From Sphingobacteriales bacterium (lineage in GTDB: Bacteria > Bacteroidota > Bacteroidia > Chitinophagales > JADIYW01): DNA of 46,352 nucleotides. Made by a program: the position numbers and the translations under genes. Each line of letters opens with the position of its first letter. Position 1 is the first letter of the stretch. The notes beneath the pieces are model-generated. The model was not told where the DNA came from, did no database searches, and saw only the letters and a program-made list of their open reading frames with translations. Of this stretch, positions 30,391 to 34,630 are shown piece by piece. The stretch spans positions 1 through 46,352 of the forward strand of contig CANHGL010000013.1 of NCBI GenBank assembly GCA_947460245.1, in the 5' to 3' direction.

Positions 30391-30464
30391 GGGGGATTAG
30401 CTCAGCTGGCTAGAGCGCTTGCATGGCATGCAAGAGGTCATCGGTTCGACTCCGATATTCTCCA
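30391..30464 (+). tRNA. tRNA-Ala(GGC)
   Basis: 74 bases with a full cloverleaf: acceptor GGGGGAT/ATTCTCC with two G-U pairs, D stem GCTC/GAGC, anticodon stem CTTGC/GCAAG with loop ATGGCAT (anticodon GGC), variable AGGTC, T arm ATCGG-TTCGACT-CCGAT, discriminator A. CCA is not encoded. Its last 30 bases recur at 32731-32760 and 34562-34591, marking it as an integration target. Confidence 0.95.
30435..30464 (+). repeat. Attachment-site core, copy 1 (attL, within tRNA-Ala)
   Basis: The 30-base 3' end of the tRNA (variable loop, T arm, acceptor). It matches copy 2 with one mismatch and copy 3 with two. Confidence 0.75.
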
Positions 30465-30480
30465 CGACTTATCTACTTAT

Positions 30481-30504
30481 AAAACCCTTATTCATCAGGG
30501 TTTT
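30481..30504 (+). terminator. Hairpin terminator after tRNA-Ala / left end of element 1
   Basis: AAAACCCT (30481-30488) pairs with AGGGTTTT (30497-30504) around TATTCATC and is followed by T. A related hairpin sits at the same place after att copy 2 (32777-32805). Confidence 0.75.
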
Positions 30505-30560
30505 TCCATTAATAAGCCTTTTTTTTAGATACCCAGATGTAACCCTGTAACTCTCAATTT

Positions 30561-30577
30561 GGGTCATAAATGGGTCA
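30561..30577 (+). repeat. GGGTCA direct repeat, 11-base spacing (candidate integrase arm site, left)
   Basis: GGGTCA at 30561-30566 and 30572-30577, one helical turn apart, overlapping the start of the integrase fragment. The same spacing recurs at both right ends. Confidence 0.5.
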
Positions 30578-30755
30578 CAAATCTTCTAAAGGTTCAGTTT
30601 CAATAATTGAATATAAAGGCAGAATCAGGTTAAGGTGGAGACATTTGCAAAAAAGGTATTCTCTAAACTTCTCAATCTGGAATCAGCTTAATCTGCTAAA
30701 GGCAAAAAAGACTGCTTTACAGAACTCCTATATTAGAAGATTGACATTCTTATAA
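30570..30755 (+). pseudogene. Tyrosine recombinase (phage integrase) fragment, N-terminal part only
   Basis: 61 codons. The segment KGSVSIIEYKGRIRLRWRH followed by KRYSLNFS resembles the N-terminal arm-binding domain of tyrosine integrases that insert in tRNA genes. The stop follows after LTFL, and no catalytic domain (R..HxxR..Y) is found downstream before the opposite-strand SHOCT gene. The position just inside the left end of an element in a tRNA 3' end is where such an integrase belongs. Family call from pattern only. Confidence 0.6.
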
Positions 30756-30802
30756 TTATTCAGGAGTATATATGAATGCAATTAACTTATGAGATATAAA
30801 GA

Positions 30803-31597
30803 TTATAATTTGTCTAAAAGTTTTTTCTTAGCTACACTATATTCTTCCTTTGTTATTGCACCTGAATCAAGTAACTTTTTTAATTTGGCTAACTCATCAG
30901 TAATACTAATACTAGTATTTTTATCTTGAACTAATTTTACTTCTATAGACGTAGAATTCTTATTAATTGGTTGTTTTGCTGGATAAATAAGCTCCCCTGA
31001 ATTAACAGCATTTTCATAGTCAATATAATATCTTTCACTGGCAAAAATCCACTTGCCTTTTCTATTACCAAAAATCCCATCTGTCGGCTCAGCAATTACG
31101 GGAAGATAATTATATCCTGTTTTTTTACTTCCTATTCTCTTTAGGTTAACTAACACAAATTGTTTTCCCGAAGAGGTTGGTGCCATTGAAGAAGTTAAAT
31201 CAAAACTAGAATTATAAGATTTATAGGTTGGCTTGGGTCCTTCTGTTATTACATCAACTAAAGATTGTTTTTTGCCTGATGAACCATAAAGAAAATACTT
31301 ATCAATACTTTGTAAAAATCCACCAGTATATGACATATCAGTATTACTAGAACTGACTAAAAAAATATATTTGAAATATCCTTTCTCACCAGAACCAGCA
31401 CCAATCTTTAAGACCTGATGGTGATAGAATTTATACCCGGAAGTTGTATACAGTGTATCTCCTTCATCAAATTGGTGCATTCTCTTAACAGAATTAAAAT
31501 AATAGATAGAATCTCTGTTTAATGCAAGCTCCTTTTCGGTTTGGCTAAAAATAAAACTTGAAATTACTACCAATATTAAAGTGAATGTAATCCTCAT
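30803..31597 (-). CDS. Secreted protein with C-terminal SHOCT domain
   Basis: 264 residues from ATG 31597; the TTG seven codons upstream is less likely. Signal peptide about 1-20 (ending SFIFSQ). The middle 190 residues are beta-rich and unrecognised, with several Tyr/Ser-rich stretches. The last 33 residues match the SHOCT (short C-terminal) domain: LAKLKKLLDSGAITKEEYSV. SHOCT is usually an oligomerisation or regulatory tail. Cargo of element 1; role unknown. Confidence 0.75.
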   Translation of the reverse strand: MRITFTLILVVISSFIFSQTEKELALNRDSIYYFNSVKRMHQFDEGDTLYTTSGYKFYHHQVLKIGAGSGEKGYFKYIFLVSSSNTDMSYTGGFLQSIDKYFLYGSSGKKQSLVDVITEGPKPTYKSYNSSFDLTSSMAPTSSGKQFVLVNLKRIGSKKTGYNYLPVIAEPTDGIFGNRKGKWIFASERYYIDYENAVNSGELIYPAKQPINKNSTSIEVKLVQDKNTSISITDELAKLKKLLDSGAITKEEYSVAKKKLLDKL

Positions 31598-32640: not shown

Positions 32641-32760
32641 TGGGTCACGTATGGGTATCAATAAAATAAGTTTTTAATAGAATTTTTGATAATACTGGGG
32701 TTTTAGTTTAAGCATCCCGATACATCGGGAAGGTCATCGGTTCGACTCCGATATTCTTCA
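32641..32760 (+). repeat. Element right-end repeat, copy A (att copy 2 at 32731-32760)
   Basis: 120 bases, roughly 90% identical by eye to 34471-34591. Order: GGGTCA/GGGTAT at 11-base spacing (32642, 32653), a conserved AT-rich spacer, GGGGTTTTAGTTTA, hairpin TCCCGATACATCGGGA, then the 30-base tRNA-Ala 3' end with one mismatch (TTCTTCA for TTCTCCA). Confidence 0.8.
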
Positions 32761-32776
32761 TAAAATAATTTCATAG

Positions 32777-32805
32777 AAACCCTTATTCAGTAAGGGTATT
32801 TTCTT
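32777..32805 (+). terminator. Hairpin at the left end of element 2
   Basis: ACCCTTA (32779-32785) pairs with TAAGGGT (32791-32797), followed by ATTTTCTTTT. It shares AAACCCTTATTCA with the hairpin after tRNA-Ala. Confidence 0.6.
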
Positions 32806-32846
32806 TTACAGAAATTTATTAGAGACTGTTAAATATAAAAAATGAA

Positions 32847-33617
32847 TTATTTATGTTTAAACCAGCAATCTGTTCGGTTACTTTCGTACATTTTAAACAC
32901 TGTATTTATTGGTGCTCCATGTTTCACTTCATTGTTATATTTTGTTCTCATCAAATAATTAAAAGCACCCATATCTCCTGTAAATCCACTTTTATTATCG
33001 AAATTAAAACGCTGATGTATTATACATAATTCTTTTATAAACTCATACAATAAAGAAGCCTCTCCCCCTATAATGCCGCAATTCAATAACGTTTCATTTG
33101 CAAATTTTTGTTCATACTCTGCATAATCTGTTATTTGCACTCTCAGATTGGCTGAATGTGCTTGCATCCATTCATTTTGCAATTTTTTGGACTCGTCTCC
33201 ACAAAAAATTGATTTTGAATTTTTCTTGAAAAATTTTTCTTGAAATGGATTTTTTAAAACAACGACGTCTGAGATGTCTGTTACGAAAATATTCTTAACA
33301 AGTTTTAAGTGTTGTTGTATAAAACTTTTATAAACGAAATATCTATATACATTAGGATTGAATGGAGTGTTGTACTCAATTTTTACAAAGGAAACGTAAT
33401 CATTCTGGAATTTTTCGCAGGTTTTTTTTTTAAAGTTATTATGGAAGATAATGCCACAAAGTTTTGAATCCGCAACAGATTCCGCCCAATTTTTAACCAA
33501 CTCATAACTGTCACATTCTAAAGTCATGTTTCGGTTTACATCAAACACACCAGTGATGTGACAAGCCATTATAATGTTTGTATCTGTAGAAAATGGCTTT
33601 GTTTCAAAATTCATCAT
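32847..33617 (-). CDS. Putative glycosyltransferase (GT-A-like), element 2 cargo
   Basis: 256 residues, no signal or membrane segment. FVTDISDVVVLKNPF (D114, D117) resembles the DxD-type metal site of GT-A enzymes that act with the donor sugar, and LLNCGIIGGEASLL and GDMGAFNYL resemble GT8-like acceptor regions. Donor and acceptor unknown. Its start overlaps the end of the GT2 gene by 14 bases, so the two are coupled. Likely modifies a surface polysaccharide or protein glycan; inference from the pair. Confidence 0.62.
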   Translation of the reverse strand: MMNFETKPFSTDTNIIMACHITGVFDVNRNMTLECDSYELVKNWAESVADSKLCGIIFHNNFKKKTCEKFQNDYVSFVKIEYNTPFNPNVYRYFVYKSFIQQHLKLVKNIFVTDISDVVVLKNPFQEKFFKKNSKSIFCGDESKKLQNEWMQAHSANLRVQITDYAEYEQKFANETLLNCGIIGGEASLLYEFIKELCIIHQRFNFDNKSGFTGDMGAFNYLMRTKYNNEVKHGAPINTVFKMYESNRTDCWFKHK

Positions 33618-34272
33618 GATTTGAATGAGTTGAGAAATTTTTACTTTTTATTGATGAACAAATACTCGTAGGTATATTTCTGTAATAAATGTAGGTTCTT
33701 AGATCTGCTTTTTTAACTCGAAAATTTAATTTTGCTTTTTCATAAAAATCTGCATCCGCAGCGAAACCACTTCTGAAGTTGATCATTGAAAAAACTTTTT
33801 TGCGGCCAAATAGTGTACCAAATAAAACACTATTATCCAAGTGGATGAGTTTCGTTAAATCATTTTTGTCAGGGACATAAAAATCTTTTATGTCATCAAC
33901 TATAGTAGCAGACTTAGAACAAATTAAGTCATAATTATCAATAGCAAGGAGGCAAGCAGATAAGTGATTGGGTTTGTATTCATCGTCACTATCTAGAATG
34001 GTGATGTATTCACCAACACAATTTAGAACACCTCGATTAATAGATTCTGATTGACCCCTATTACTATGTCTGATATAAATTAATTTATCTTCATTTTTTT
34101 CTACACACTCTAACAGTAATTCTCGATTATTCTCTTTGCTTCCGTCATCGATAATAATTAATTCGAAATTTTGGAAATCTTGGTTTAAAACAGAATCAAT
34201 TGCCCGTTTTATATAAGTAAAATTGGTATTGTAAACAGCCATTAAAATCGAGATTTTTATTTGGGATTTCAT
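33604..34272 (-). CDS. Family 2 glycosyltransferase, element 2 cargo
   Basis: 222 residues. A typical GT2 N-terminus SILMAVYNTNFTYIKRAIDS, nucleotide-binding IIIDDGS (D42, D43) and the DxD site ITILDSDDEY (about 88-97). It is shorter than many GT2 proteins and lacks membrane helices. Transcribed with the downstream glycosyltransferase. Donor sugar unknown. Confidence 0.88.
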   Translation of the reverse strand: MKSQIKISILMAVYNTNFTYIKRAIDSVLNQDFQNFELIIIDDGSKENNRELLLECVEKNEDKLIYIRHSNRGQSESINRGVLNCVGEYITILDSDDEYKPNHLSACLLAIDNYDLICSKSATIVDDIKDFYVPDKNDLTKLIHLDNSVLFGTLFGRKKVFSMINFRSGFAADADFYEKAKLNFRVKKADLRTYIYYRNIPTSICSSIKSKNFSTHSNHDEF

Positions 34273-34630
34273 ATAGCTTGCTTATTGGTAGTTAAAATAT
34301 AATAGTAATTTGCAAAGTTGAATTATTTTATCCGTAATTGAGTTATTTAATCCGGTATTATTTTCTCTTTTAAATATGATACAAGAATTATGATAATTAT
34401 ATTAATGTAAAAAGGTAATCTTCAATTCAATTTTTCGGCTTTTTTTATAAGTAATATCTTAACTAGATTTTGGGTTACGTTTGGGTATCAATAAAATAAG
34501 GTTTTATTAGAAGTATTGGTAATACTGGGGTTTTAGTTTAAAGCGTCCCGATACATCGGGAAGTACATCGGTTCGACTCCGATATTCTCCACTCATCTAT
34601 TTCTCCCTTTTTATGCTTAGTTTTATCTAT
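34273..34630. other. Gene-free right end of the island
   Basis: 358 bases: AT-rich spacer, element right-end repeat copy B (34471-34591), then about 40 bases of chromosomal leader before the FAD oxidoreductase. It must also hold the GT2 promoter. Confidence 0.65.
34471..34591 (+). repeat. Element right-end repeat, copy B (att copy 3 at 34562-34591)
   Basis: Same order of parts as copy A: GGGTTA/GGGTAT at 11-base spacing (34472, 34483), conserved spacer, GGGGTTTTAGTTTA, hairpin TCCCGATACATCGGGA, tRNA 3' end. The last 26 bases equal the tRNA exactly. Confidence 0.8.

What the first reader, a model, noticed from the sequence alone, without database searches (positions are those of the whole stretch)
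30391..34591. Two tandem members of one small integrative-element family stacked at tRNA-Ala(GGC)
Seen: the last 30 bases of the tRNA recur at 32731-32760 (one mismatch) and 34562-34591 (two mismatches). Each interval has the same left-end hairpin (AAACCCTTATTCA..., 16-17 bases after the core) and the same roughly 120-base right end. Known: tyrosine integrases often target tRNA 3' ends and rebuild the tRNA. Inference: two related elements of 2.3 and 1.8 kb accreted one after the other. Only an integrase fragment survives in the first and none in the second, so they may be decayed islands or non-autonomous cassettes moved by an integrase in trans. The second holds just two coupled glycosyltransferases, which looks like a minimal surface-glycan cassette.
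Basis: partly seen in the sequence, partly recalled or inferred. Interest (0 to 1): 0.75.

Follow-up and report, generated by a model that had tools for sequence, protein, structure and literature searches.

The report
Two decayed tRNA-targeting elements, disarmed cores
Two worn-out mobile DNA elements of one family are stacked behind an alanine tRNA gene, and their right ends carry a broken tRNA copy with a hairpin in place of the anticodon arm, the mark of a widespread group of tiny nuclease-linked tRNA duplications that I found no report of.

Summary
The last 30 bases of tRNA-Ala(GGC) recur at 32731-32760 and 34562-34591. The right ends are 90% identical over 125 bp, and both intervals start with the same terminator hairpin. 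A congener (G001) has the empty site: SurE-LpxB-tRNA-Ala-FAD oxidoreductase. The two ends belong to a rare tyrosine-integrase family. An intact element of it sits at tRNA-Pro in G159, and in 396 genomes of the order the right-arm pattern occurs only there and twice in this window. Element A keeps 51 integrase residues, the left arm and a RadC remnant. Element B keeps only its right end, a terminator and two glycosyltransferase genes; it lacks the left arm, so it is better read as decayed than as a working cassette. The same hairpin-bearing broken tRNA copies occur widely in Bacteroidota, usually just behind an intact tRNA and often behind an 80-90-residue GIY-YIG nuclease gene; 41 of 51 such nuclease loci have a same-strand tRNA within 700 bp upstream. 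That class is present elsewhere in this genome, and my literature searches found no report of it. How integrase ends came to carry the hairpin is inference.

The parts
30391..30465 (+). tRNA-Ala(GGC), intact target gene; bases 30436-30465 are the repeated core
   Evidence: ARAGORN; Rfam RF00005 61.7 bits; core repeats
30481..30505 (+). left-end hairpin of element A (terminator-like, AAACCCTT..AGGGTTTTT)
   Evidence: fold z -3.3; homologous to 32778-32799; absent from the empty site in G001
30558..30578 (+). left arm site TTTGGGTCATAAATGGGTCAC, overlapping the integrase start
   Evidence: aligned with left ends of the G159 and G100 elements
30570..30755 (+). integrase remnant (residues 1-51 of about 377; 57% identical to G159 and G100 integrases)
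   Evidence: full relatives carry PF12167 and PF00589
30803..31618 (-). cargo A: secreted-type protein with C-terminal SHOCT domain
   Evidence: Pfam
31718..32074 (+). cargo A: RadC (JAB) remnant, N-terminal part missing relative to the RadC in the G159 element
   Evidence: PF04002 4e-33; G159 RadC
32174..32458 (+). cargo A: 94-aa ORF, no family
32637..32660 (+). right arm site of A: ATTTTGGGTCACGTATGGGTATC
   Evidence: pattern found at 3 places in 396 genomes: this, 34470 and G159; alignment
32697..32760 (+). disarmed tRNA copy A (hairpin 32715-32730 replaces the anticodon arm; 30-base tRNA 3' half 32731-32760)
32778..32799 (+). left-end hairpin of element B
32847..33617 (-). cargo B: 256-aa glycosyltransferase, C-terminal half of phrog_1579 type
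   Evidence: phrog_1579 9e-27; plasmid homologues annotated glycosyltransferase
33604..34272 (-). cargo B: GT2 glycosyltransferase, overlapping the previous gene by 14 bp
   Evidence: PF00535 2e-29
34467..34490 (+). right arm site of B: ATTTTGGGTTACGTTTGGGTATC
34527..34591 (+). disarmed tRNA copy B (hairpin 34546-34561; tRNA 3' half 34562-34591)

Best explanation
Two insertions of one rare family of tRNA-targeting tyrosine-integrase elements (PF12167 arm-binding plus PF00589 catalytic domain, TGGGTCA-type arm sites at both ends, RadC among the cargo) accumulated behind tRNA-Ala(GGC). Each rebuilt the tRNA 3' half and supplied a terminator. B, next to the FAD oxidoreductase gene, is probably the older; A entered between the tRNA and B. 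Both have since decayed: A keeps 51 integrase residues, the left arm and a RadC remnant; B keeps only terminator, cargo and right end. Their right-end cores are not the native half-tRNA seen in intact relatives but copies whose anticodon arm is replaced, in register, by TCCCGATACATCGGGA. The likeliest source is recombination with, or integration into, a hairpin-bearing tRNA copy of the GIY-YIG-associated class that shares these tRNA loci. Shown: repeats, arms, empty site, integrase family, hairpin, and the class in other genomes and at another tRNA of this genome. Inferred: order of insertion, source of the hairpin, loss of mobility.
For: Empty site with synteny in G001. Right-arm pattern at only 3 places in 396 genomes: both ends here and the intact G159 element. 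Left and right ends align with G159 and G100. The G159 element is complete: tRNA-Pro, integrase, RadC, right arm, attR. G100 has an intact element of the family at tRNA-Ala(GGC) with a native attR, directly followed by hairpin tRNA copies and a GIY-YIG gene, so both classes do meet at one tRNA. No other copies of the right end in the genome. Lower G+C.
Against: The tRNA/right-end identity is 30 bp, starting after the anticodon stem, whereas intact relatives repeat the anticodon arm too. B has no left arm or integrase, so its independent insertion rests on the shared ends alone. Only one congener gives the empty site in the same gene order. The genome is a draft of 85 contigs.
Confidence: 0.78

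Rival explanations
1. One insertion only: a single integrase element whose right end (arm plus disarmed tRNA) was duplicated by recombination, with the glycosyltransferase pair captured between the copies.
For: B has no left arm or integrase of its own; the two right ends share the whole 125 bp including the unusual hairpin.
Against: B also begins with the same terminator hairpin as A; the copies differ by about 10%; tandem insertion at tRNA genes is common for integrase elements (established knowledge).
Confidence: 0.14
2. Both intervals are GIY-YIG-type tRNA duplications that later gained or exchanged cargo; the integrase piece is an unrelated later arrival.
For: The hairpin and the tRNA 3' copy in register are the signature of that class, which is present in this genome at tRNA-Val.
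Against: No GIY-YIG gene or remnant in either interval; both right ends carry integrase arm sites of the G159 family, which the GIY-YIG units examined lack; intervals are 1.8-2.3 kb instead of about 0.1 or 0.35 kb.
Confidence: 0.06
3. Chance repeats or ordinary tRNA pseudogenes without mobility.
For: tRNA pseudogenes exist.
Against: Repeat E=5e-44; hairpin pattern 0.05 expected in the window against 3 seen; empty site; integrase remnant and arm sites.
Confidence: 0.02

Closest known systems
Integrative elements of tyrosine integrases that use tRNA 3' ends, with tandem accretion (genomic islands, ICE/IME)
   Same: tRNA rebuilt, direct repeats, integrase next to the tRNA, arm sites, tandem stacking, low G+C
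   Different: integrase here is a 51-residue remnant; no relaxase or transfer gene seen; core anticodon arm replaced by a hairpin
   Same: same integrase family (57% identity over the remnant), same arms at both ends; RadC in G159
   Different: full integrase, 4-8 kb, native anticodon arm in attR
SegB of T-even phages (PMC13096335), a free-standing GIY-YIG homing endonuclease
   Same: cuts in tRNA genes and drives tandem amplification of tRNA plus nuclease gene; mechanistic model for the GIY-YIG/hairpin class
   Different: phage genomes, intact tRNA copies amplified, no hairpin replacement described in the passages read; no GIY-YIG gene in the window intervals
E. coli tyrT (rtT) repeats (from memory)
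   Same: tandem repeats holding a piece of the tRNA 3' end behind a tRNA gene
   Different: no hairpin exchange, no nuclease, no integrase

Membership tests
Tyrosine-integrase element family of G159/G100 | integrase of the PF12167+PF00589 family beside the tRNA | tested here: inconclusive
   only residues 1-51 remain in A, none in B
Tyrosine-integrase element family of G159/G100 | TGGGTCA-type arm pairs at left and right ends | tested here: met
   left arm in A; right arms in A and B; rare pattern; left arm missing in B
Tyrosine-integrase element family of G159/G100 | direct repeat of the tRNA 3' end including the anticodon arm (seen in the two intact relatives) | tested here: not met
   repeat starts after the anticodon stem; hairpin instead. 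Hence described as decayed, variant relatives and not as typical members
Tyrosine-integrase element family of G159/G100 | empty site in relatives | tested here: met
   G001
GIY-YIG/disarmed-tRNA units | same-strand intact tRNA upstream and tRNA 3' half repeated right after the hairpin | tested here: met
GIY-YIG/disarmed-tRNA units | GIY-YIG gene between tRNA and disarmed copy (or about 0.1-kb spacing without gene) | tested here: not met
   none in either interval; spacing 1.8-2.3 kb
ICE/IME | relaxase or transfer genes | tested here: not met
   no such family match among the six element ORFs
Any of these | present-day excision or integration | not testable with these tools
   needs junction PCR or long reads

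The most novel reading that the evidence does not exclude
The disarmed tRNA copies mark an undescribed, widespread class of chromosomal tRNA parasites: a GIY-YIG nuclease of 80-90 residues homes to tRNA genes, leaving behind the intact tRNA a duplicate of tRNA 3' half plus terminator (exact repeats of 28-75 bp) in which a TCCCG-N-CGGGA hairpin replaces the anticodon arm; integrase elements at the same tRNAs can pick up these cores, as here.
Probability: 0.55. Interest if true: 0.8.

Novelty: new variant of a known kind. Interest (0 to 1): 0.55.

Why it matters
The stacked integrase elements are of a familiar kind. What is unusual is the core: a tRNA copy disarmed by a conserved hairpin. Following it shows that many Bacteroidota genomes, and a few in other phyla, carry GIY-YIG-linked tRNA duplications in which the non-functional copies have lost the anticodon arm at one exact place. 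If this is homing to tRNA genes, it is a chromosomal counterpart of phage SegB and a general source of tandem repeats and pseudo-tRNAs beside tRNA genes, which tRNA finders partly misread.

Tried and rejected
Viral contigs: 39 of 42 pattern hits are genuine tRNAs with a 5-bp TCCCG stem and 7-nt loop, so phages are not the home of the class at this sensitivity. Integrase relatives in viral contigs: none; a second, strict search of 395 phylum genomes gave G100 only, so the family is rare. AlphaFold of the 256-aa glycosyltransferase from one sequence was useless (pLDDT 34), so no fold search was run. Phage records hold no relative of the GIY-YIG protein. Rfam sees the copies only as weak tRNA or tmRNA matches. 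G003 and G006 also have tRNA-Ala next to the FAD oxidoreductase, but divergently, so they were not used as empty sites. I considered that the hairpin is a common terminator palindrome: it occurs 3 times in 46 kb against 0.05 expected, and two of the three are these cores. The RNA fold of the disarmed copies is hardly better than shuffles (z -1.3, -1.5), so a working tRNA-like RNA is not claimed.

Full report
1. The observation. tRNA-Ala(GGC) lies at 30391-30465. Its last 30 bases recur at 32731-32760 and 34562-34591; every other place in the window has 12 or more mismatches. The right ends match over 125 bp at 90% and the left ends over 72 bp at 81%. A search of the whole genome with the right end finds only these places and the tRNA itself. 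Both left ends fold as a terminator-like hairpin.

2. The insertion. In the congener G001 the order SurE (84% identical), LpxB (59%), tRNA-Ala, FAD oxidoreductase (58%) is kept, with less than 50 bp between tRNA and oxidoreductase, where this window has 4.1 kb. The inserted DNA is lower in G+C (0.306 and 0.293 against 0.37 in the flanking genes).

3. The integrase family. The ORF at 30570 matches the first 51 residues of full integrases in G100 and G159 (57% identity); no other place in this genome matches that stretch. In G159 the element is complete: tRNA-Pro(CGG), left arm, 377-aa integrase (PF12167, PF00589), RadC, right arm ATTTTGGGTCACGTTTGGGTCAT and an attR that repeats the anticodon arm and 3' half. 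The window's right arms, ATTTTGGGTCACGTATGGGTATC and ATTTTGGGTTACGTTTGGGTATC, align with it. The arm pattern occurs at three places in 396 genomes of the order: the two here and G159. This ties both window ends to one rare family. A strict search of 395 phylum genomes found only G100.

4. Decay. A has lost all but 51 residues of its integrase and part of RadC; B has no left arm and no integrase. B's cargo is a GT2 enzyme (PF00535) and a partner that matches the C-terminal half of phage glycosyltransferase family phrog_1579, so 'two coupled glycosyltransferases' holds and a phage origin is possible. With neither integrase nor left arm, 'cassette moved in trans' is less likely than decay.

5. 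The missed part. In both right ends the place of the anticodon arm is taken by TCCCGATACATCGGGA, between a degenerate 5' tRNA part and the tRNA 3' half. A pattern for such copies occurs in 23 of 398 genomes of the order, none with the reversed control pattern, and in 119 stretches of a public genome collection before the scan hit its limit. After removal of genuine tRNAs, 71 of 124 hits from that collection have a tRNA within 700 bp upstream, and 44 have a GIY-YIG gene upstream. Named examples include Flavobacterium caseinilyticum with five copies spaced by about 357 or 716 bp and Algoriphagus marincola.

6. Search from the other side. With a GIY-YIG profile (A1, seeded partly from these loci), 75 of 120 order genomes and 62 of 99 phylum genomes have relatives. 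Of the 51 best loci with enough upstream sequence, 41 have a same-strand tRNA within 700 bp upstream and none has one on the opposite strand on either side. In 34 a tRNA piece of at least 14 bases recurs behind the gene; the most frequent start of the repeat is the first base after the anticodon stem (13 cases, plus 6 at two bases before it). A stem of 6 or more pairs sits just before the tRNA-like 3' part in 21 of 26 loci against 1.8% at random positions; the stem starts TCCCG in 17, and CCCCG/CGGGG and CTCCG/CGGAG variants keep the pairing. The exact repeat is 28-75 bp and often includes the terminator. In three tRNA-Asp or tRNA-Gly loci the hairpin seems to lie in the variable region or T arm instead. 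The loci were ranked by score and not sampled at random, so these fractions describe the class, not all GIY-YIG genes.

7. The class in this genome and genus. This genome has such a unit at tRNA-Val(TAC) on C18 and a tandem GIY-YIG pair on C59. At tRNA-Val the genus is mixed: units in G000, G002 and G004, empty in G001, G003, G005 and G006; G004 also has an array of disarmed copies in front of the tRNA. This polymorphism fits a mobile or rapidly turning-over unit.

8. How the two meet. In G100 the integrase element at tRNA-Ala(GGC) has a native attR, directly followed by hairpin copies and a GIY-YIG gene. A register-preserving exchange between such neighbours, or integration into a hairpin copy, would give the right end seen here; the hairpin lies about as far from the arm (74 bp) as the anticodon arm does in G159 and G100. 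This step is inference. Because both window ends share it, the composite end existed before the second copy formed.

9. Known or not. tRNA-targeting tyrosine-integrase elements and their accretion are well known. For the GIY-YIG/hairpin class eight literature searches found no report, and the classic survey of the superfamily, searched for the word tRNA, mentions no such linkage. The library is incomplete, so this is not proof of novelty. The nearest mechanism is phage SegB, which cuts tRNA genes and drives tandem amplification of tRNA plus segB (PMC13096335).

10. Verdict. Observation confirmed; interpretation mostly right on kind and stacking, not on the cassette idea, and incomplete on the core.

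Noticed in passing
L269 3255-3720 (G000 C18): Intact GIY-YIG unit at tRNA-Val(TAC) of the same genome: tRNA, terminator, 88-aa GIY-YIG gene, disarmed tRNA copy with an extra insert in the T arm, terminator again.
   Followed up: partly
L268 177-752 (G000 C59): Two tandem GIY-YIG genes with CCCCGAGCACTCGGGG hairpins at a contig edge; the parent tRNA is outside the contig.
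   Followed up: partly
L337 (G004 C63): Array of about 98-bp disarmed tRNA-Val copies (hairpin TTCCGATTAACATCGGAA) in front of the tRNA, besides GIY-YIG units behind it.
   Followed up: no
G446 C34 about 6982-9766: Eight GIY-YIG matches in tandem at about 365-bp spacing.
   Followed up: no
L298, L310, L322: The TCCCG..CGGGA hairpin seems to sit in the variable region or T arm of tRNA-Asp and tRNA-Gly copies, so the hairpin and not its position in the tRNA is what stays constant.
   Followed up: partly
window 26536-26554: Third TCCCG..CGGGA hairpin of the window (TCCCGCAACAAGTGCGGGA), not at a tRNA found by ARAGORN.
   Followed up: no
L267 4368-12660 (G159): Intact 8.2-kb integrase element at tRNA-Pro(CGG) with RadC and several unassigned genes; best reference for the family.
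   Followed up: partly
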